Shown here: positions 20,672-28,697 of the stretch, piece after piece
How the letters are laid out: every line of letters starts with the position of its first letter
How positions within the stretch are numbered: position 1 is the first letter of the stretch
DNA from: Hyphomicrobiales bacterium
Lineage (GTDB): Bacteria; Pseudomonadota; Alphaproteobacteria; Rhizobiales; Xanthobacteraceae
Direction of reading: 5' to 3'
Assembly: GCA_021323775.1 (NCBI GenBank)
Contig: JAJPKK010000019.1
Location: 1-47,865, forward strand
DNA: 47,865 bases
Notes under the pieces: generated by a model
The model's input: only the letters and a program-made list of their open reading frames with translations
What the model was told of the DNA's origin: nothing
Databases searched by the model: none
Position numbers and translations under genes: made by a program

Positions 20672-21940
20672 ATGAAGGAAACGTCTCGGAGCGAAACCGA
20701 ACGGGTGGCGGGCAACGGGCTCTTGCATCGCCGCATGTTTCTCACCGGCAGCGCGGCCGCGATCGGCGCCGGCACGATAGTGGATCAGGCCGGCGCAGCG
20801 CCGCTCGCGGTCGAGCCGTGGATGAGAATTCCAGGCGCGCCGTTCAATGCTTACGGCCAGCCTTCAAAGTACGAGGAAAAGGTCGCCCGCACCTGGGCGT
20901 CGGCTCCGGGCACCGGAGGCACCGGCTCCGCGCGCACCCCGCACCACCTGCTCAACGGCATGATCACCCCGAGCGGGCTGCATTTCGAGCGCAGCCACAG
21001 CGGCGTTCCGGACATCGATCCGGACAAGCACCGCCTGCTCATTCATGGTCTGGTGAAGCGTCCGCTCGTCTTCACGCTCGATGATCTCGGCCGCTATCCG
21101 ATGCAATCGCGCATCGCGTTCGTGGAATGCGCCGGCAACAGCGGCGCCTTGTTCGCGAAGCAGCCGGCGAACGCCAACGTGCAGGCGATCCACGGCCTGT
21201 TGTCGTGCTCCGAGTGGACCGGCATCAAGCTCTCGGTGCTGCTGGAGGAAGCGGGCATCGACCCGGCAGCCAAGTGGGTGCTGGCGGAAGGCGCCGATGC
21301 GGCCGGCATGAGCCGCTCATTCCCGATTGAAAAGGCGCTCGATGACGCGATGGTCTGCCTCTACCAGAACGGCGAGCGCGTGCGGCCGTCGAACGGCTAC
21401 CCCTTGCGTCTGCTGCTGCCCGGCTTCGAAGGCAACATGAACGTCAAGTGGCTGCGGCGCATCAAGCTCACCGCAGGCCCGACCATGACCAAGGACGAGA
21501 CGTCCAAATACACGATCCTGCTGCCGTCCGGGAAAGCGCTGCAATTCGTATTCCCGCTGGAAGGCAAGTCGATCATCACCCATCCGTCGCCCGGGCTGAC
21601 GGTGCGCGGGCCGGGCTTCTACGAAATCTCGGGCCTCGCCTGGTCGGGCTACGGCAAGATCGCGAAAGTGGAGGTGTCGGCGGACGGCGGCAAGAGCTGG
21701 GGTCTCGCCGCATTGCAGGAGCCGGTGCTGTCCAAAGCCGTGACCCGCTTCCGCATGGCATGGCAATGGGACGGCGGCCCGGCGGTGCTGCAGAGCCGCG
21801 CGACCGACGAGACCGGCTACGTGCAGCCAAGCCGCGCCCAGCTCGTTGCGCTGCGCGGCGACCGCGGCAATTATCACAACAACATGATCCAGTCCTGGGC
21901 AGTGGCCGCCAGCGGCGAGGTGAAAAATGTCTATGCGTAA
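20672..21940 (+). CDS. soxC: SoxC-like sulfane/sulfite dehydrogenase molybdenum subunit
   Basis: The 422-residue protein has a twin-arginine signal (HRRMFLTGSAAAIGAG, Arg20-Arg21), so it is exported folded with its cofactor. The sulfite-oxidase fold is shown by DPDKHRLLIHGLVKRPLVFTLDDL, the molybdenum-binding Cys153 in RIAFVECAGNSGAL, WTGIKLSVLLEEAGI, NGYPLRLLLPGFEGNMNVKWLRRI, and a C-terminal dimerisation domain (ISGLAWSGYGKIAKVEVSADGGKSW). SoxC with SoxD oxidises the sulfane sulfur in the Sox pathway; related SorA oxidises sulfite. ATG at 20672 has GGGAGGAG upstream. It overlaps the cytochrome gene by 14 bases. No soxXYZAB genes are in the window. Confidence 0.88.
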   Translation: MKETSRSETERVAGNGLLHRRMFLTGSAAAIGAGTIVDQAGAAPLAVEPWMRIPGAPFNAYGQPSKYEEKVARTWASAPGTGGTGSARTPHHLLNGMITPSGLHFERSHSGVPDIDPDKHRLLIHGLVKRPLVFTLDDLGRYPMQSRIAFVECAGNSGALFAKQPANANVQAIHGLLSCSEWTGIKLSVLLEEAGIDPAAKWVLAEGADAAGMSRSFPIEKALDDAMVCLYQNGERVRPSNGYPLRLLLPGFEGNMNVKWLRRIKLTAGPTMTKDETSKYTILLPSGKALQFVFPLEGKSIITHPSPGLTVRGPGFYEISGLAWSGYGKIAKVEVSADGGKSWGLAALQEPVLSKAVTRFRMAWQWDGGPAVLQSRATDETGYVQPSRAQLVALRGDRGNYHNNMIQSWAVAASGEVKNVYA

Positions 21941-22463
21941 GGTCTTCGTCGCGGCTGTCCCGGCGGTTCTTATAGCGCTCACGGCGCCCGTACCCGCGCA
22001 GCAAAGCCCCAATCTCGGCAAGCCGATCTCGCAGGAAGACCTGGCCTCCTGGGACATCAGCATCGGCCCGGACGGCGCCGGACTGCCGCCGGGCAGCGGC
22101 ACCGTACAGCAGGGCGAGGCGGTGTTCGCGGCGAAGTGCCAGGCCTGTCACGGCGAGAAAGGCGCCGGCCAACCCAACGATCGCCTGGTCGGCGGTCAAG
22201 GTTCGCTGCCAGGCGACAAGCCGGCCATCAAGACAGTCGGCAGCTATTGGCCGTATGCCACGACTCTGTTCGACTACATCCGGCGCGCCATGCCGCTCAA
22301 CGAGTCGAAGTCACTCACGAATGACGAGGTCTACGCGGTGGTGGCGTACCTGCTCAACCTGAACGGCATCATCCCCGTGAGCGAAACGATGAACGCGGAG
22401 TCGCTGCCGAAGGTGATGATGCCGAACCGCGAAGGATTTGTCACGTTCACCCGCGGCAAGTAG
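21927..22463 (+). CDS. soxD: SoxD-like periplasmic monohaem cytochrome c
   Basis: The 178-residue product has a signal peptide (MRKVFVAAVPAVLIALTAPVPAQ), a segment typical of SoxD-type cytochromes (LGKPISQEDLASWDISIGPDG) and one haem site, CQACH at 71-75. Candidate axial Met residues are in RRAMPLN and KVMMPN. It would take electrons from the SoxC-like subunit. Classical SoxD is about twice as long and has two haem domains, so this is a short form, closer in size to SorB. Its start overlaps soxC by 14 bases (a second ATG is at 21933), indicating translational coupling. Confidence 0.82.
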   Translation: MSMRKVFVAAVPAVLIALTAPVPAQQSPNLGKPISQEDLASWDISIGPDGAGLPPGSGTVQQGEAVFAAKCQACHGEKGAGQPNDRLVGGQGSLPGDKPAIKTVGSYWPYATTLFDYIRRAMPLNESKSLTNDEVYAVVAYLLNLNGIIPVSETMNAESLPKVMMPNREGFVTFTRGK

Positions 22464-22802: not shown

Positions 22803-23639
22803 ATGGACTGGCGGCTGATTGCCGCTGTTTCGGCGGCGACTGGTTCCTTTTGCTTCGTTGCCTTTGGCGCCTATGTGGTATTCACCCACAATCCGGCTCC
22901 GCAGCGGACGGCTGCTCCCGCTCCGATGCTTCTCTCCGAATTTCGATTCCCGGCCGCGGCGCCGCCGTCGCTGCTGAGCGTGCAGCCCGCATCCGCCAGT
23001 TCGTCCGCGCCAGATCCGTTTGGGCCAGGCGTGTTTGCGTCTGCGTCGAGTCCGTTTGCGCCTCAGGCCAACGCAGCGCCGCCTGCGCCCTACCCTCCCC
23101 TGCCAACAGCAGAGCGGCAAATGGGGCCGGCGACGTCCGGGGCAGCCGCTGCGCCGGGACGCATCGGCGCGTCCGCCCAGGCGGTCAATCCGCCGCCGCG
23201 CCAGCCGCACGGCGCCGGCTATAAGAGCGCTGCCCTTACGCCTTTCGATGCAGCCCCACGGCCCGAGCCGCCACGGCCGGTCATCGAGATGAAAAAAAAT
23301 TCGGTGGTGCCGGAGCTTCACGCGGCGCCGCCCGCCGCGCGCTACCGCGGGGTGCTGACTTCAGCGGAAATTGTTCGCATCAAATCCAATCTGCGGCTCA
23401 CCCCAGACCAGGAGCGGGCGTGGCCGCCGGTCGAAGCCGCTCTGGCCGAGATGGGGCGGCAGCAGATCGCATTGATCCGGCGCGGACAAGAGCCGCGGAT
23501 TTCTCCGAATGACTGGCCGCCGGGCCGGCTCTACGCGATTGCCGGACCGCTCTTGCAAACCTTGCGGCCCGATCAGAAGGAGGCAGTCCGCAGGCTCTGC
23601 CGGTCACTCGGATTCGAGGGCGTGGCATCCATGATCTAG
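22803..23639 (+). CDS. Membrane-anchored protein with Pro-rich linker and LTxxQ-like C-terminal domain
   Basis: The 278-residue product starts with one membrane segment (about 5-28), followed by about 150 residues rich in Pro, Ala and Ser, and a compact C-terminal helical domain of about 95 residues. That domain contains NLRLTPDQERAWPPVEAALAEM and LLQTLRPDQKEAVRRLCRSLGF, the paired LTxxQ-like repeats seen in the Spy/CpxP group of periplasmic chaperone-like proteins and in many rhizobial hypothetical proteins. The likely location is the periplasm, tethered to the inner membrane. Function is not known. ATG at 22803 has no strong ribosome-binding site. Confidence 0.65.
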   Translation: MDWRLIAAVSAATGSFCFVAFGAYVVFTHNPAPQRTAAPAPMLLSEFRFPAAAPPSLLSVQPASASSSAPDPFGPGVFASASSPFAPQANAAPPAPYPPLPTAERQMGPATSGAAAAPGRIGASAQAVNPPPRQPHGAGYKSAALTPFDAAPRPEPPRPVIEMKKNSVVPELHAAPPAARYRGVLTSAEIVRIKSNLRLTPDQERAWPPVEAALAEMGRQQIALIRRGQEPRISPNDWPPGRLYAIAGPLLQTLRPDQKEAVRRLCRSLGFEGVASMI

Positions 23640-24039: not shown

Positions 24040-25836
24040 ATGAGGGTCAGCGCATGGCCCATCATCGCGTTCGGGGCCGCCGCGCTGGCGGGCGCGATCC
24101 TGACGCTCGCGCCGGACCGAGCCGCCGCCGCCGATAATATGGTGGTGAAGCGCTTTTCGAGCGGCGCCACGCAGAATTCCGTCGGCATCGTCGACGCTGC
24201 CGAAGACGCCCCGCAAGACGGCCCGCAGGCGATCTACGCGGCCGACGACGGCAGCCTCTATCTGCTTGATCAGGTCAACAGCCGCATTCTGCGCTTCGAT
24301 GCGAGAACTCCGGGCGCCCCCGTTCAATCCCTCGAGCTGCCCGACAACATGCGGCCCACCGACATCGTCATTCGGCGCGGCAGCGTCTATGTGTGGGACG
24401 GCGCCCCGCGGGCTCTGCTGCCGACCGGCCGGGAGGATGCGCCGGTGCGCGGATTGACCCAGACCCGTTCGACCGAGGCGCCGGACGATTTCACTCTTTC
24501 GGCCTTCGCGCAGATGGGCTCGCAAGCCCTCGACAGCCCTGATGAGCTGCTCGGCGAACGGACGCGCGCCATCCCCGTGAACCGAAGGCCGGCCCGGCAG
24601 TTCGTCGCCTCGCGCGGCCGCGGCTCGGTCACGGCCGACGTCACCATAGGCGACAAGCTTAATACCGCTCAGGTCGAGGTGCGCGAGCAGGCCTCGAACG
24701 CGGAGATTGCGAAGCTGCATCTGCGCGTGCGCGATCGCATCGGCGCCGTTGAGTTTCTTGAGATCGACAACAGCGGCCGGATGTTCGTTCTCACCGAAAA
24801 CATCCCAAATAATGCGAAGCGCGCTGCGGCCGCCTTCGTGGTTCGCTTCTCTCCGCAAGGGGTGCAGGAAAGCGTCTACGATATTCCGCTTCAGGACAGC
24901 GTGGCGCTGTCGCGACGCTTCGTTGCAATTTCGCCGGAGGGCGATGTCTACTTCCTGCGCTCGCGGAAGTCCGAGGTCGATGTCATTGGCGTCGGCTCGC
25001 GCAGCGTGCGCGCGAACGCCATCATCGACAATCCGAGCCTCACCCGCGTTGCGGACAACGAGGCGCGGATCCCTGCCAAGGGCCTGGCTGCGGCGGTGCG
25101 GCCACTGACGCGCCAGCAGGTGGTGCAGACCGCTTTCGGCTTCGAAGGCTTGCAATGGCGTCTCACGCCGGCGAATTACGGCCCCGACCCGGATATGACG
25201 TGCACGGGGTTCAACCGCATCCGGCGGCCGGGCTACCTCAGCGGCAAGCTCAATCAGGAGGTGCGCGGCGTCCCCTATTGCTGGGGGTGCATGGGCTCGC
25301 TCAATCAGTTCCGCCTGAGGGTGGCGAACGGCATGCTCGCCGGCAACGTCTGCACCCACAACGAGCCGCGAACCGATGTCGCCGGCGTTGATTGCTCCGC
25401 CTTCGTCAGCGCCGCCTGGGGCCTTGCCAATCACTTCACCACAGCCGCGATGCCGGCGATCACGACCGTACTTGCCAATCCGTGGGATTTGCAGCCGGGC
25501 GATGCGCTCAACAAGCCCGGCAGCCATGTGATGTTGTTTTTGCGCTTTACGCCGGATCGCAAGGTCGAGGTCATGGAGTCCTCGACGGGCGGGTGCAATG
25601 GCCGTGTCTGCCGCAATGTCTACCCGCTCGCGTCCCTGCTGGCGCGGGGCTTCAAGCCGGTCCGTTTCAACGCCTTGCAAGACCAGACGGCGGTGGCCGC
25701 GGCGGCATCCAATGACGACAGGTCGACCGGAAACAAAGGCGCGCTGCACGCGTCCGCTCCCTCGTCTCCCGCGCAAGCGGCCGAAGGCAGAGAGGCGGCG
25801 GAGCGGGGTGGACGCCATCACAGAAAGCACAGGTGA
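24040..25836 (+). CDS. Exported beta-propeller-like protein with C-terminal NlpC/P60-type cysteine hydrolase
   Basis: The 598-residue product has a signal peptide (WPIIAFGAAALAGAILTLA, cut likely near RAAAADN). Residues about 55-330 contain strand-rich repeats with NHL/propeller-type words (IYAADDGSLYLLDQVNSRIL, EIDNSGRMFVL, VAISPEGDVYFL). Residues about 385-540 contain a Cys hydrolase-like part: VPYCWGCMGS, the likely nucleophile Cys452 in AGVDCSAFVSAAWG, and His496 in KPGSHVMLF, as in NlpC/P60 (peptidoglycan peptidase or amidase fold). The tail is basic and low-complexity. ATG at 24040 has AGGA upstream and begins the signal peptide. Its stop overlaps or nearly abuts the caspase-like gene, so the two are likely co-expressed. 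Substrate is unknown. Confidence 0.72.
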   Translation: MRVSAWPIIAFGAAALAGAILTLAPDRAAAADNMVVKRFSSGATQNSVGIVDAAEDAPQDGPQAIYAADDGSLYLLDQVNSRILRFDARTPGAPVQSLELPDNMRPTDIVIRRGSVYVWDGAPRALLPTGREDAPVRGLTQTRSTEAPDDFTLSAFAQMGSQALDSPDELLGERTRAIPVNRRPARQFVASRGRGSVTADVTIGDKLNTAQVEVREQASNAEIAKLHLRVRDRIGAVEFLEIDNSGRMFVLTENIPNNAKRAAAAFVVRFSPQGVQESVYDIPLQDSVALSRRFVAISPEGDVYFLRSRKSEVDVIGVGSRSVRANAIIDNPSLTRVADNEARIPAKGLAAAVRPLTRQQVVQTAFGFEGLQWRLTPANYGPDPDMTCTGFNRIRRPGYLSGKLNQEVRGVPYCWGCMGSLNQFRLRVANGMLAGNVCTHNEPRTDVAGVDCSAFVSAAWGLANHFTTAAMPAITTVLANPWDLQPGDALNKPGSHVMLFLRFTPDRKVEVMESSTGGCNGRVCRNVYPLASLLARGFKPVRFNALQDQTAVAAAASNDDRSTGNKGALHASAPSSPAQAAEGREAAERGGRHHRKHR

Positions 25837-25847
25837 GAGGCAGGGCG

Positions 25848-27593
25848 ATGAGCATCTCTTTCAGGGACGCTGGTCCGTTCCTTCGATCCACATTTTCTGC
25901 ATTGACGCTCGCATCGGTTACGCTTGCCAGCCTGATCTTCGATGGGCGCTACACCGCACAGGCGGCCATTCGTCCGCCGGAAGGCGGGGAGGTGCGCGCC
26001 CTGGTGATCGGTATCGATGCCTATCAGTTCGTGCCCCCGCTGCGTGGCGCTGTGGCGGATGCCCGCGACATCGAACAGACATTGCGAAGCCAGGGCGTCA
26101 GGGACATTACCGCCCTCTACGACGCAGCGGCCGACCGCGCGACGGTGATGCGCACGCTCGAGGAGCTCGTGCAGCGGAGTCAGTCCGGCGACCTCGTCGT
26201 ATTGTCGATCGCCGGCCATGGCGTGCAGGAGCCCGAGCACATCAAAGGGTCGCAACCCGACGGCCTCGACAATGTCTTTGTGCTCGCCGGCTTCAATCCA
26301 AAGACCCCGGCCGGGACGCAGCAACGCATCATCGGCACCGAATTCAACCATGTGATCAAGCAATTCGAGGCCAAGGGCGCCCAGGTCATGTTCGTCGCCG
26401 ACGCCTGCTACGGCGGCGGCCTGGCGCGTGAAATCGATCCCCGCGCCGGCGAAATGAGCTTTCGCCAGGCGCCGCGCTATTCGCTGACGTTCGACGCTCT
26501 CCAGCGGATCTCGACCGCGAGCGATGCGTTCCTGAGCGATATCGATTTCGAGCGGACCGCATTTCTCGCTGCGGTCGATCGCAACACCAAGGCGCCGGAA
26601 GTCCGCATCCCCGGCGTGCCCGGATTCCGGGGTGCGCTAAGCTACGCGGTAGCTCGCGCATTCGAGGGCGCTGCAGACGAAAACCGGGACGGTCACGTTT
26701 CGCATACCGAGCTGTTCACTTATGTGCGGCAGGTGGCCTACCAGCTCTCCGATCAGCGGCAGCTGGTCGTTACCAGCGGTCCGATGACGCGCGCCGGGGG
26801 TTCCGACGTGGTCTTCGAACGCACGCGCGGGGTGATCGTGCTCGATGCGGTGCAGCCCAGCGAAACGCGCCCCCAGCCGCCGGCGCCCGTCGCCGCGGCG
26901 TTGCCCGGCGCGCAGCAGGCCGCGCGTCCGCCGGCGCCCCCCCCGCCAGCGCCGGCCCCAGGCGCGTTGGGCATCGTCCGGATCGCCGCCCTCGGTGACC
27001 AGCGCGATCTCCTGGCCAATCTCGAAGCCCGGGAGGCGCGTTTCGAGGTGGTCGGCATCAAAGACAATCCCGATCTCATTTGGGATCCGGCGTCCCTCGA
27101 GGTGCTCGCCGGTGGTGATATCGTCGCCTATGGGATTGACCGCGCCGGCCTCGGCAGCGTCGTTGACCGCGTGGCCGCCGTCAACGGCTTCAAGCGCCTC
27201 GCCGCCAAAGCGCCGCAACCGGTGCGCATCCTGCCGGACGACAAGGTCCATCGCCGCGACGCGCGCATCGATGTCGAGGTGTCCGGCGTCGCGGCGCGTT
27301 CGCTTTTGATGTTCAACATCGCCGGCGACGGCACGGTGCAAACCCTGTATCCGATCGGCTCGGACGCGCGCATCATCGCGACTCCCGACTACAAATTCCA
27401 GGTGCGGGCCGGAGAGCCATTCGGGGCGGATCAGGTGGTCGCGATTTCCTCGCAGCTGCGTCTTGGCGACCTTGAAGAGGCATTGCGAAAAATGAGCCAG
27501 CGCCGCACCGCGGTCGAGGTGTTCAAGCTGGTCGAGCGCTATGCGCCTGCCGACGCCAGGATCGGCGCCGCCAGCCTCTACACCGCGCCGTAG
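25848..27593 (+). CDS. Exported caspase-like (peptidase C14) protein with EF-hand-like loop and DUF4384-like domain
   Basis: The 581-residue product has an N-terminal hydrophobic export segment (about 15-40, ending TAQAAIRPP). The caspase fold follows: RALVIGIDAYQFVPPLRGAV, catalytic His124 in VLSIAGHGVQ and Cys187 in MFVADACYGGG. A calcium-loop-like DENRDGHVSHTEL is at about 277-289. A Pro/Ala-rich linker (about 335-375) leads to a C-terminal region with LLMFNIAGDGTVQTLYPIG, resembling DUF4384. Bacterial caspase-like proteins are usually cytoplasmic; export makes this one unusual. ATG at 25848 has a GAGAGGCAGGG site; a GTG at 25833 overlaps the upstream stop (GTGA). Catalysis and calcium binding are inferred from motifs. 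Confidence 0.8.
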   Translation: MSISFRDAGPFLRSTFSALTLASVTLASLIFDGRYTAQAAIRPPEGGEVRALVIGIDAYQFVPPLRGAVADARDIEQTLRSQGVRDITALYDAAADRATVMRTLEELVQRSQSGDLVVLSIAGHGVQEPEHIKGSQPDGLDNVFVLAGFNPKTPAGTQQRIIGTEFNHVIKQFEAKGAQVMFVADACYGGGLAREIDPRAGEMSFRQAPRYSLTFDALQRISTASDAFLSDIDFERTAFLAAVDRNTKAPEVRIPGVPGFRGALSYAVARAFEGAADENRDGHVSHTELFTYVRQVAYQLSDQRQLVVTSGPMTRAGGSDVVFERTRGVIVLDAVQPSETRPQPPAPVAAALPGAQQAARPPAPPPPAPAPGALGIVRIAALGDQRDLLANLEAREARFEVVGIKDNPDLIWDPASLEVLAGGDIVAYGIDRAGLGSVVDRVAAVNGFKRLAAKAPQPVRILPDDKVHRRDARIDVEVSGVAARSLLMFNIAGDGTVQTLYPIGSDARIIATPDYKFQVRAGEPFGADQVVAISSQLRLGDLEEALRKMSQRRTAVEVFKLVERYAPADARIGAASLYTAP

Positions 27594-28019
27594 CAGCGGG
27601 ATACAACCGCAGGCCCTGGGGGTTGGCTTATCGAGGGCGCTCCGATGAGATTGAATCACCCTCATGCCCGTGCACAAACACCCTGCCGCGTCAGCCGGCG
27701 GGGAGCCGGTCTTCGCAAGCATCCGGGTCTTTGCCGCGGCGCCTCCCCTAAAGAGACGTGGAAGGCCGGGACAGGCCCCATTGGGGCTAACTCAGGCTGC
27801 GCGCTCCCGCCCCTGCTTGCGGAGGAGGGTTGGGGAGCGGGCTCTTGCGGCGAGTCAGTGTCCGGGGACACGGTCCCCTCCCGAGCCCTCCCCCGCAAGC
27901 GGGGAAGGAGAAAGACTGCTGCCGGGCTGCGCGAATCGACCCGCTCAGTCTCGGCGAAGCTTAAGTTAACGCTTACGGGGACAAGCCCGGCCATCACTCC
28001 ACAGGAGATGGCCAACGTC
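27594..28019. other. Intergenic region with palindromic repeats
   Basis: Holds three inverted repeats: a GCTCCC/GGGAGC pair spanning about 27803-27841, GTGTCC-GG-GGACAC at 27858-27871, and CTCCCCCGCAAGCGGGGAAG at 27888-27907. They may limit read-through from the caspase-like gene to the DUF4384 gene. A frame open from 27645 is read through these repeats and is not considered coding. Confidence 0.6.
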
Positions 28020-28697
28020 ATGGGGCGCTGGTCCAAGATCGCGCGACGGGCCGTCGCGGGATTGGCGGCCGCGGTTCTGACCGGAACAGCCGCTCTTGCC
28101 CAGGCGCCGCATTCGGTGACGATCCTTCCCGATGTTCCGGAGCCGCCGTCCGCCACACGGACGCCTGACTTTTCGATGGCAAGGCTCGAACTCCTGAACT
28201 CGACCATCAAGGTCGAAAATCCGGCGGGCGTCTCGGTCGATGTCATCCCCAAGCTGGAAGTGCCTGCCGGTTCGAAGATCGGATTCCGCATCGCCGCAAA
28301 GAGAGCAGGCTATGTCATTCTCCTGGACGTCGATGCGAGCGGGAGGCTCACGCAGATATTCCCGAACCCAACTGCCGCAACCCACGGCTTGCGCGGCGCG
28401 ACCAATCTGATCAAACCGGGACACAGTCTGACCATCCCGCAACCTGGCACCCCTTATGCGGGGTTCGAATTCGTTGCCGAGCCGCCGGGCGGCATCGCAA
28501 TGGTGGTTGCGCTGTTGAGCGACAGGCCGGTGCAGGTCGTCGATCTTCCCGACACTCCCCCTCCCGCTTTCGCGCCCGGCGATACGCTGAAATATGTCCG
28601 CGATCAGGCGAGGACACTTAAGGTTGCGAATCCGGAGGGCGGGCGGCTGGAGCAGCCGAATTGGTCGATCGACGGAAAATTCTATCTCATCAGATAG
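28020..28697 (+). CDS. Secreted DUF4384 domain protein
   Basis: The 225-residue product has a signal peptide (RRAVAGLAAAVLTGTAALAQ). The mature part contains VPAGSKIGFRIAAKRAGYVILLDVDASGRLTQIFPNP and a later GFEFVAEPPGGIAMVVALLS strand pair, the pattern of DUF4384, a beta-sandwich that commonly accompanies caspase-like or kinase proteins. The same domain type closes the caspase-like protein just upstream, so the two may act on the same partner. Start: ATG at 28020, 12 bases after AGGAG; ATG at 28008 lies too close to that site. The quoted strand is at mature positions about 80-115. Confidence 0.72.
   Translation: MGRWSKIARRAVAGLAAAVLTGTAALAQAPHSVTILPDVPEPPSATRTPDFSMARLELLNSTIKVENPAGVSVDVIPKLEVPAGSKIGFRIAAKRAGYVILLDVDASGRLTQIFPNPTAATHGLRGATNLIKPGHSLTIPQPGTPYAGFEFVAEPPGGIAMVVALLSDRPVQVVDLPDTPPPAFAPGDTLKYVRDQARTLKVANPEGGRLEQPNWSIDGKFYLIR

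What the first reader, a model, noticed from the sequence alone, without database searches (positions are those of the whole stretch)
24040..28697. Exported cysteine-hydrolase, exported caspase-fold protein and DUF4384 partners in one cluster
Three consecutive plus-strand genes all carry export signals. The first joins a propeller-like region to an NlpC/P60-type hydrolase (Cys452, His496). The second has a caspase His124/Cys187 pair, a calcium-loop-like DENRDGHVSHTEL and a DUF4384-like end. The third is DUF4384 alone. The first two are coupled within about 12 bases. Two different cysteine hydrolases in the periplasm, one of caspase type with a possible calcium switch, suggest an extracytoplasmic proteolytic or cell-wall-acting system; I know of no described system with this exact set. 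That it is a functional unit is inference.
Basis: partly seen in the sequence, partly recalled or inferred. Interest (0 to 1): 0.72.

Follow-up and report, generated by a model that had tools for sequence, protein, structure and literature searches.

The report
Periplasmic hydrolase–caspase module tied to T6SS
Three exported bacterial proteins, a likely cell-wall cutter, a caspase-like protease and a small partner protein, form a conserved set that in many relatives sits inside the gene cluster of a bacterial harpoon (type VI secretion), suggesting an undescribed periplasmic helper or control module for that weapon.

Summary
24040-25833 (P1): beta-propeller plus divergent NlpC/P60-fold domain, Cys452/His496 invariant in 15 of 15 orthologues. 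25848-27590 (casA): caspase with His124/Cys187, EF-hand-like loop, DUF4384-like end. 28008-28694 (P3): DUF4384. P1-casA are 11 bases apart; P3 follows a 414-base gap.

9 of 15 P1 loci lie among tss genes; in the closest relative P1-casA-P3 sit between clpV and tssA. 10 of 12 P1 genomes carry TssF against 27 of 195 P1-negative ones. The window's P1 nests in the T6SS-linked clade, so the module was probably moved away from the T6SS that this genome keeps on two other contigs. In some relatives casA has lost its caspase and the P3-type gene carries an intact-looking trypsin. The T6SS kinase PpkA's periplasmic domain resembles casA's C-terminus.

Best reading: an optional periplasmic accessory module of one PpkA-type T6SS subtype, combining peptidoglycan cutting with a regulatory protease. 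Linkage and folds are supported; mechanism is inferred. Against: two P1 genomes lack TssF, four P1 loci form a non-T6SS clade, and 11 of 21 T6SSs of this subtype come from genomes without P1.

The parts
24040..25836 (+). P1 (P0001): exported protein, NHL-like beta-propeller (about residues 30-324) plus divergent NlpC/P60-fold domain (about 353-548), Cys452/His496
   Evidence: export judged by eye
25848..27593 (+). casA (P0002): exported caspase/metacaspase-like domain (His124, Cys187, EF-hand-like loop 277-288) with DUF4384-like C-terminal domain
   Evidence: export judged by eye
28008..28697 (+). P3 (P0003): exported stand-alone DUF4384 protein; relatives elsewhere carry caspase and/or trypsin domains in front
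   Evidence: export judged by eye
27594..28007 (.). 414-base spacer between casA and P3 holding a dispersed repeat (78% over 103 bases on contig C201 of the same genome); in the closest relative L013 the listed ORFs are 14 bases apart

Best explanation
The three genes are an optional periplasmic accessory module of one subtype of type VI secretion system in Hyphomicrobiales (the subtype with PpkA, PppA, TagF), which in this genome lies away from the T6SS locus, probably by relocation. Shown by computation: membership in a conserved gene set, physical linkage to T6SS genes in 9 of 15 loci, the folds and conserved catalytic residues, and differing distribution of protease domains between casA and the P3-type gene. 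Inferred: P1 cuts peptide bonds in peptidoglycan where the T6SS spans the cell wall (as TagX does in Acinetobacter); the caspase (in other genomes a trypsin-like domain) is a regulatory protease that trims or removes P1 or another envelope partner, possibly in a calcium-dependent way; DUF4384-type domains, also resembled by the periplasmic end of the kinase PpkA, hold the module together and may carry its state to PpkA, which controls T6SS assembly.
For: (1) 9 of 15 P1 loci lie among T6SS genes; in L013 P1-casA-P3 sit between clpV and tssA; in L078 they follow tssM, tagF, pppA, ppkA and a DUF4424 gene. (2) TssF in 10 of 12 P1-positive genomes versus 27 of 195 P1-negative ones, P = 5.5e-7 (two overlapping draws, kinship not corrected; 3 of 4 versus 27 of 195, P = 0.011, within one draw). 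Control: the casA family at large shows no link, 7 of 38 versus 23 of 161, P = 0.34. (3) The P1 tree puts the window inside the 11-row clade that holds all nine T6SS-linked rows (sister L013, 100/99). (4) In a 42-row TssF tree the TssFs of 8 of the 9 linked loci (L015 not in the tree), of G662 and of the own genome fall in one clade (21 rows, support 100). (5) The own genome has this T6SS with PpkA, PppA, TagF. (6) Protease domains: caspase in casA with bare P3 (window, L013, L014, L078) versus caspase-less casA with trypsin-dead-caspase-P3 (G137, G610). (7) PpkA periplasmic domain versus casA C-terminus: hhalign 87.6% against 5.6, 0.5 and 1.1% for three control pairs. (8) Precedents: TagX (PMC5061870, passages); RtkS, a periplasmic activator of PpkA (PMC6082577, passages); A. 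tumefaciens lacks TagQRST (PMC3953482, passages).
Against: Two of 12 P1 genomes (G155, G657, one genus) have no TssF match (other tss genes not searched there). Four P1 rows form a separate clade whose loci show no T6SS genes but OmpA-casA-trypsin/caspase genes, so the module can exist without this T6SS. 11 of 21 TssF rows of the relevant clade come from genomes without P1, and no P1 was found in 15 stretches around eight of these T6SSs, so it is not essential to that T6SS. In the window itself no T6SS gene is nearby. L015's casA has lost the catalytic His, and its P3 has no trypsin. PpkA-P3 profile similarity is weak (20.8%), Pfam sees no DUF4384 in PpkA, and kinases with that domain also occur near T6SSs without P1 (G024, G058). 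No activity, interaction or expression was tested.
Confidence: 0.55

Rival explanations
1. A general envelope-quality or stress module (peptidoglycan hydrolase plus protease, as with MepS-NlpI-Prc) that has no functional tie to T6SS; linkage reflects shared genomic islands.
For: Four P1 loci in a separate clade are not T6SS-linked; G155 and G657 lack TssF; related casA-family genes occur in 31 of 38 cases in genomes without TssF.
Against: 9 of 15 P1 loci lie among tss genes, at differing positions inside the clusters; 10 of 12 versus 27 of 195 co-occurrence; linked loci confined to one TssF clade as far as placed.
Confidence: 0.28
2. Periplasmic sensor feeding the T6SS threonine-phosphorylation pathway, in place of TagQRST or RtkS, with the hydrolase and protease acting mainly as signal generators. 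(Overlaps with the best explanation; it differs in the main task.)
For: PpkA periplasmic domain resembles casA C-terminus; linked genomes carry PpkA, PppA, TagF genes; Agrobacterium lacks TagQRST; RtkS precedent.
Against: PpkA-type T6SSs occur without P1; homology is moderate and no interaction was tested.
Confidence: 0.3
3. P1 is a T6SS antibacterial effector (Tae-like amidase) and P3 or casA its immunity.
For: NlpC/P60-type fold; Tse1/Tae1 structures are among the matches (Z about 7).
Against: P1 has an apparent Sec signal (by eye) and a propeller, is found in two genomes without TssF, and matches other NlpC/P60 hydrolases better (Z 10.6 versus 7.2).
Confidence: 0.06
4. Caspase-based anti-phage or cell-death system.
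For: casA matches PADLOC's caspase model, E 1.1e-17.
Against: Exported location by eye; the eight neighbouring proteins scanned show no defence domain (Pfam only); P1 and P3 match no PADLOC model.
Confidence: 0.03

Closest known systems
TagX, T6SS peptidoglycan hydrolase of Acinetobacter (PMC5061870, passages)
   Same: Envelope peptidoglycan peptidase encoded in T6SS clusters of several species
   Different: TagX is an L,D-endopeptidase of the LAS family with metal-coordinating residues; P1 has an NlpC/P60-type Cys-His fold and a beta-propeller, and is optional
RtkS / TagQRST, periplasmic inputs of the T6SS kinase PpkA (PMC6082577, passages)
   Same: Periplasmic proteins linked to PpkA-PppA-TagF type T6SS
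   Different: Sequence relation not tested; here the parts are a hydrolase, a protease and DUF4384 proteins
Trypsin - QC pseudo-orthocaspase - DUF4384 proteins of Rhizobiales (PMC6426788)
   Same: Same architecture as the P3-type gene of L018, L019, L084; section 13 also notes DUF4384 with kinase domains
   Different: Section 13, the one I read whole, does not mention T6SS or a partner hydrolase; in the window the trypsin and caspase parts of this gene are absent
MepS-NlpI-Prc (PDB 8xud; regulation recalled)
   Same: NlpC/P60 hydrolase held in check by a periplasmic protease through a helper protein
   Different: Protease, helper and context are of other kinds; only the logic is compared

Membership tests
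NlpC/P60-CHAP superfamily (P1 C-terminal domain) | papain-like NlpC/P60 fold | tested here: met
   model pLDDT 81, pTM 0.81; VIA best Z 10.6, rmsd 2.7, 114 aligned, with NlpC/P60-type hydrolases filling nearly all top rows; Foldseek alone weak, best E 0.012
NlpC/P60-CHAP superfamily (P1 C-terminal domain) | catalytic Cys and His | tested here: met
   Cys452 and His496 invariant in 15 of 15; geometry not inspected
NlpC/P60 Pfam family | score over the curated cut-off | tested here: not met
   no NlpC/P60 match for P1 at E up to 1; so fold superfamily only, not the Pfam family
Caspase/metacaspase (Peptidase C14) | domain match with His-Cys dyad | tested here: met
   PF00656 51.4 bits against a cut-off of 21.4; His124, Cys187; yeast and plant metacaspases in the PDB
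Caspase/metacaspase (Peptidase C14) | proteolytic activity after basic residues, calcium dependence | not testable with these tools
   needs purified protein; an EF-hand-like loop is present
DUF4384 (PF14326), P3 | score over the curated cut-off | tested here: met
   P3 64.6 bits against 27
DUF4384 (casA C-terminus) | score over the curated cut-off | tested here: not met
   13.4 bits against 27; distant relation to P3 by hhalign 85.7%
DUF4384 (PpkA periplasmic domain) | Pfam match | tested here: not met
   no match at E up to 5 in four such domains; hhalign to casA end 87.6%, to P3 20.8%
T6SS-associated (tag) gene set | encoded in T6SS clusters of relatives and co-occurring with T6SS | tested here: met
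   9 of 15 loci linked; TssF in 10 of 12 genomes
T6SS-associated (tag) gene set | encoded in the T6SS cluster of the genome at hand | tested here: not met
   own T6SS genes found are on contigs C201 and C256, the window is C287
T6SS-associated (tag) gene set | T6SS phenotype on deletion | not testable with these tools
   bench experiment

The most novel reading that the evidence does not exclude
A periplasmic protease switch (caspase in some lineages, trypsin in others) senses the state of the cell wall opened by P1 and signals through DUF4384-type domains to the periplasmic domain of the T6SS kinase PpkA: an undescribed input to T6SS control in alphaproteobacteria that uses a caspase-type protease.
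Probability: 0.2. Interest if true: 0.85.

Novelty: new variant of a known kind. Interest (0 to 1): 0.62.

Why it matters
In the passages read, the input of PpkA differs between species (TagQRST, RtkS) and A. tumefaciens lacks TagQRST (PMC6082577, PMC3953482). What opens the cell wall for, and what feeds, the T6SS of these alphaproteobacteria is thus open as far as I read. A linked hydrolase-protease-DUF4384 module gives named genes to delete. It would also be a case of a caspase-type protease working with a bacterial secretion machine, with caspase and trypsin domains distributed differently between two partner genes as natural variants.

Tried and rejected
Effector-immunity and defence-system readings were weighed and put low. 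The first TssF tree had four rows in a wrong frame (longest ORF on either strand) and was discarded; the redone tree (LG+G4, ultrafast bootstrap) uses the reported strands. It leaves out two of the 30 genomes (G057, below the curated cut-off; G085, TssF in two pieces) and L015 (partial TssF at the locus edge). An idea that casA in general marks T6SS genomes was tested and dropped (7 of 38 versus 23 of 161). An idea that the module is needed by its T6SS subtype was dropped: 11 of 21 TssF rows in that clade come from genomes without P1, and in 15 stretches around eight of those T6SSs tblastn at 1e-5 found no P1 and no casA or trypsin partner (the other three, G121, G150 and G183, were not fetched). 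The class-wide search found P1 in 1 of 385 genomes, the window's own. Whole-model structure searches showed only the propeller; the C-terminal domain was then folded alone, and Foldseek gave no match at E 0.001 or better. The P1-positive group of the main Fisher test (12 of 397 genomes) and the negative group (195 of 199) come from two overlapping draws; within the 199 alone it is 3 of 4 versus 27 of 195, P = 0.011; kinship is not corrected for. ORF choice was a home-made GC3 rule; it missed P1 in L083, whose place comes. Papers: T6SS with DUF4384, orthocaspase or COG4249: none; with caspase, ppkA and tagF: one, where caspase stands only in a reference title; with metacaspase: eight, listing seen only; with Bradyrhizobium, Methylobacterium and ppkA: none; a six-term search gave 52, of which 20 were seen in the listing, none on such a module by title. 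The 2009 T6SS genome survey (PMC2660368) has no 'caspase', 'protease' or 'COG4249' in its held text.
Full report
WHAT IS THERE. The window is contig C287 of a 6.07-Mb draft genome in 353 contigs. P1 (24040-25833) starts with a Sec-like signal judged by eye, then a beta-propeller: Foldseek and VIA match NHL-type and other propellers over residues of about 30-324 (best Z 12.8). Its C-terminal part has no Pfam match to NlpC/P60, but folded alone with 15 aligned sequences (pLDDT 81, pTM 0.81) it aligns best with NlpC/P60 hydrolases (Z 10.6, rmsd 2.7, 114 residues). Cys452 and His496 are invariant in 15 of 15. A conserved Glu (513) may be the third residue; this is my reading of the alignment against recalled NlpC/P60 and CHAP motifs, not measured. 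casA (25848-27590) holds a caspase domain (E 1.5e-13) with His124 and Cys187, related by sequence to metacaspases in the PDB, an EF-hand-like loop (strict pattern in 15 of 25 aligned rows, this one included) and a DUF4384-like end. P3 (28008-28694) is DUF4384 (E 9e-18). P1 and casA are separated by 11 bases, casA and P3 by 414.

CONSERVED SET. P1 was found only in this order: 12 of 397 genomes of the order, the own included, and 1 of 385 across the class, again the own. With three named genomes (Tardiphaga MAG L013, Methylocella silvestris L014, Alsobacter metallidurans L015) that gives 15 loci. casA and the P3-type gene stand in the same fetched locus as P1 in 9 of 15 (window, L013, L014, L015, L018, L019, L078, L084, L085). 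In the three with the immediate order P1-casA-P3 (window, L013, L078) the genes run in one direction.

TYPE VI SECRETION. In L013 hcp, tssE, tssF, tssG and clpV precede P1-casA-P3, and tssA and vgrG follow (Pfam domains). In L078 tssM, tagF, pppA and ppkA precede them (Pfam domains). By blastp against these references, 9 of 15 P1 loci lie among T6SS genes: L013, L014, L015, L017, L078, L079, L080, L081, L083 (P1 of L083 placed). The six others are the window, L018 and L085 (one genus, no TssF in the genome), L019 and L084 (one genus, T6SS elsewhere), and L082 (a contig of 9.9 kb; it shares a DUF4424 neighbour with linked loci, and its genome has TssF on another contig). TssF occurs in 10 of 12 P1 genomes and in 27 of 195 P1-negative ones, P = 5.5e-7, or 3 of 4 versus 27 of 195, P = 0.011, within one draw. 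The casA family at large shows no such link (7 of 38 versus 23 of 161), which argues that the link is with P1 and its own casA.

HISTORY. A P1 tree splits into 11 rows, which hold all nine linked loci plus the window and L082, and four unlinked rows (midpoint root, for drawing only). The window is sister to L013 with support 100/99. In the TssF tree the TssFs of eight of the nine linked loci (L015 is not in the tree), of G662 and of the own genome fall in one clade of 21 rows (support 100); the other 11 rows are from genomes without P1. Four further TssFs of P1 genomes lie outside it: a second copy in G690, two in G023 and one in G765. The own genome's copy of this T6SS is split over two contigs: C201 carries a caspase gene, ppkA, pppA, tagF, tssM, a tssL-like gene, vgrG, tssA, tssB and tssC, and C256 tssC, hcp, tssE, tssF, tssG and clpV. 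The simplest account is that P1-casA-P3 left the T6SS locus in this lineage; the repeat-bearing spacer before P3 fits local rearrangement. This is inference from the trees.

PROTEASE DOMAINS. Where both partner genes were seen, three states occur. First, caspase in casA with a bare P3: window, L013, L014, L078, and L015, where the caspase His is gone. Second, casA without a caspase next to a trypsin-caspase-P3 protein whose caspase dyad is lost but whose trypsin motifs are intact: G137, G610 (G717 shows only the second gene, G646 only the first). Third, both: L018, L019, L084 (partner caspase with Gln for His) and L085 (partner caspase dyad intact). So at least one intact-looking protease remains in the pair in all of these except L015, which suggests that proteolysis by the pair is what is kept. 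The trypsin-QC caspase-DUF4384 architecture itself is in print for Rhizobiales (PMC6426788, section 13).

LINK TO THE KINASE. The periplasmic end of PpkA compared by hhalign with the casA C-terminus gives 87.6%, against 5.6, 0.5 and 1.1% for three control pairs; with P3 it gives 20.8%, and Pfam is silent. Similar kinase ends also occur at two T6SSs without P1 (G024, G058). I take this as suggestive only.

HOW IT PROBABLY WORKS. Inference: P1 cuts peptidoglycan locally for the T6SS (precedent TagX, PMC5061870, passages); casA or the trypsin partner limits or activates P1 or a partner by cleavage (logic as in MepS-NlpI-Prc, recalled; PDB 8xud); DUF4384 domains bind the parts and possibly PpkA, whose periplasmic input differs between species (PMC6082577 and PMC3953482, passages; TssW, PMC12607579, passages). 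None of these steps was tested. Results against: two P1 genomes lack TssF, four P1 rows are outside T6SS clusters, and the same T6SS subtype often lacks P1.

VERDICT. Observation confirmed; the unit idea is supported; its meaning was not found in the searches named in Tried and rejected: a T6SS-associated periplasmic hydrolase-caspase module, probably relocated in this genome.

Noticed in passing
window 27594-28007: Spacer between casA and P3 with a dispersed repeat (78% over 103 bases on own contig C201, also inverted copies).
   Followed up: partly
window 20672-22463: Molybdopterin oxidoreductase and c-type cytochrome pair upstream, sulfite-dehydrogenase-like (name recalled; Pfam domains).
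   Followed up: partly
window 22803-23639: Plus-strand gene of 278 aa just upstream of P1 with no Pfam match; no relative among the loci clustered.
   Followed up: partly
L042, L043, L044, L047-L051, L054-L057, L059: Adjacent casA/P3-family genes in 13 of 20 loci fetched for casA relatives, mostly two caspase genes (trypsin in the second gene of L042), often behind a gene of the OmpA-TPR family; L051 also has a cytochrome c-DUF4384 protein. Not tied to T6SS.
   Followed up: partly
L014, L078, L079, L080, L081, L082: A DUF4424 gene lies close to P1 in 6 of 15 P1 loci.
   Followed up: no
L088 1-1313 (own contig C201), L013 14368-15948, L078 14299-16176, L063 6162-8597: A further caspase gene (casC) in or near the T6SS cluster, also in the window's genome beside ppkA.
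   Followed up: partly
own genome, contigs C94, C182, C201, C286, C290, C293: Seven further Peptidase_C14 matches in the same genome, two of them on C290.
   Followed up: no
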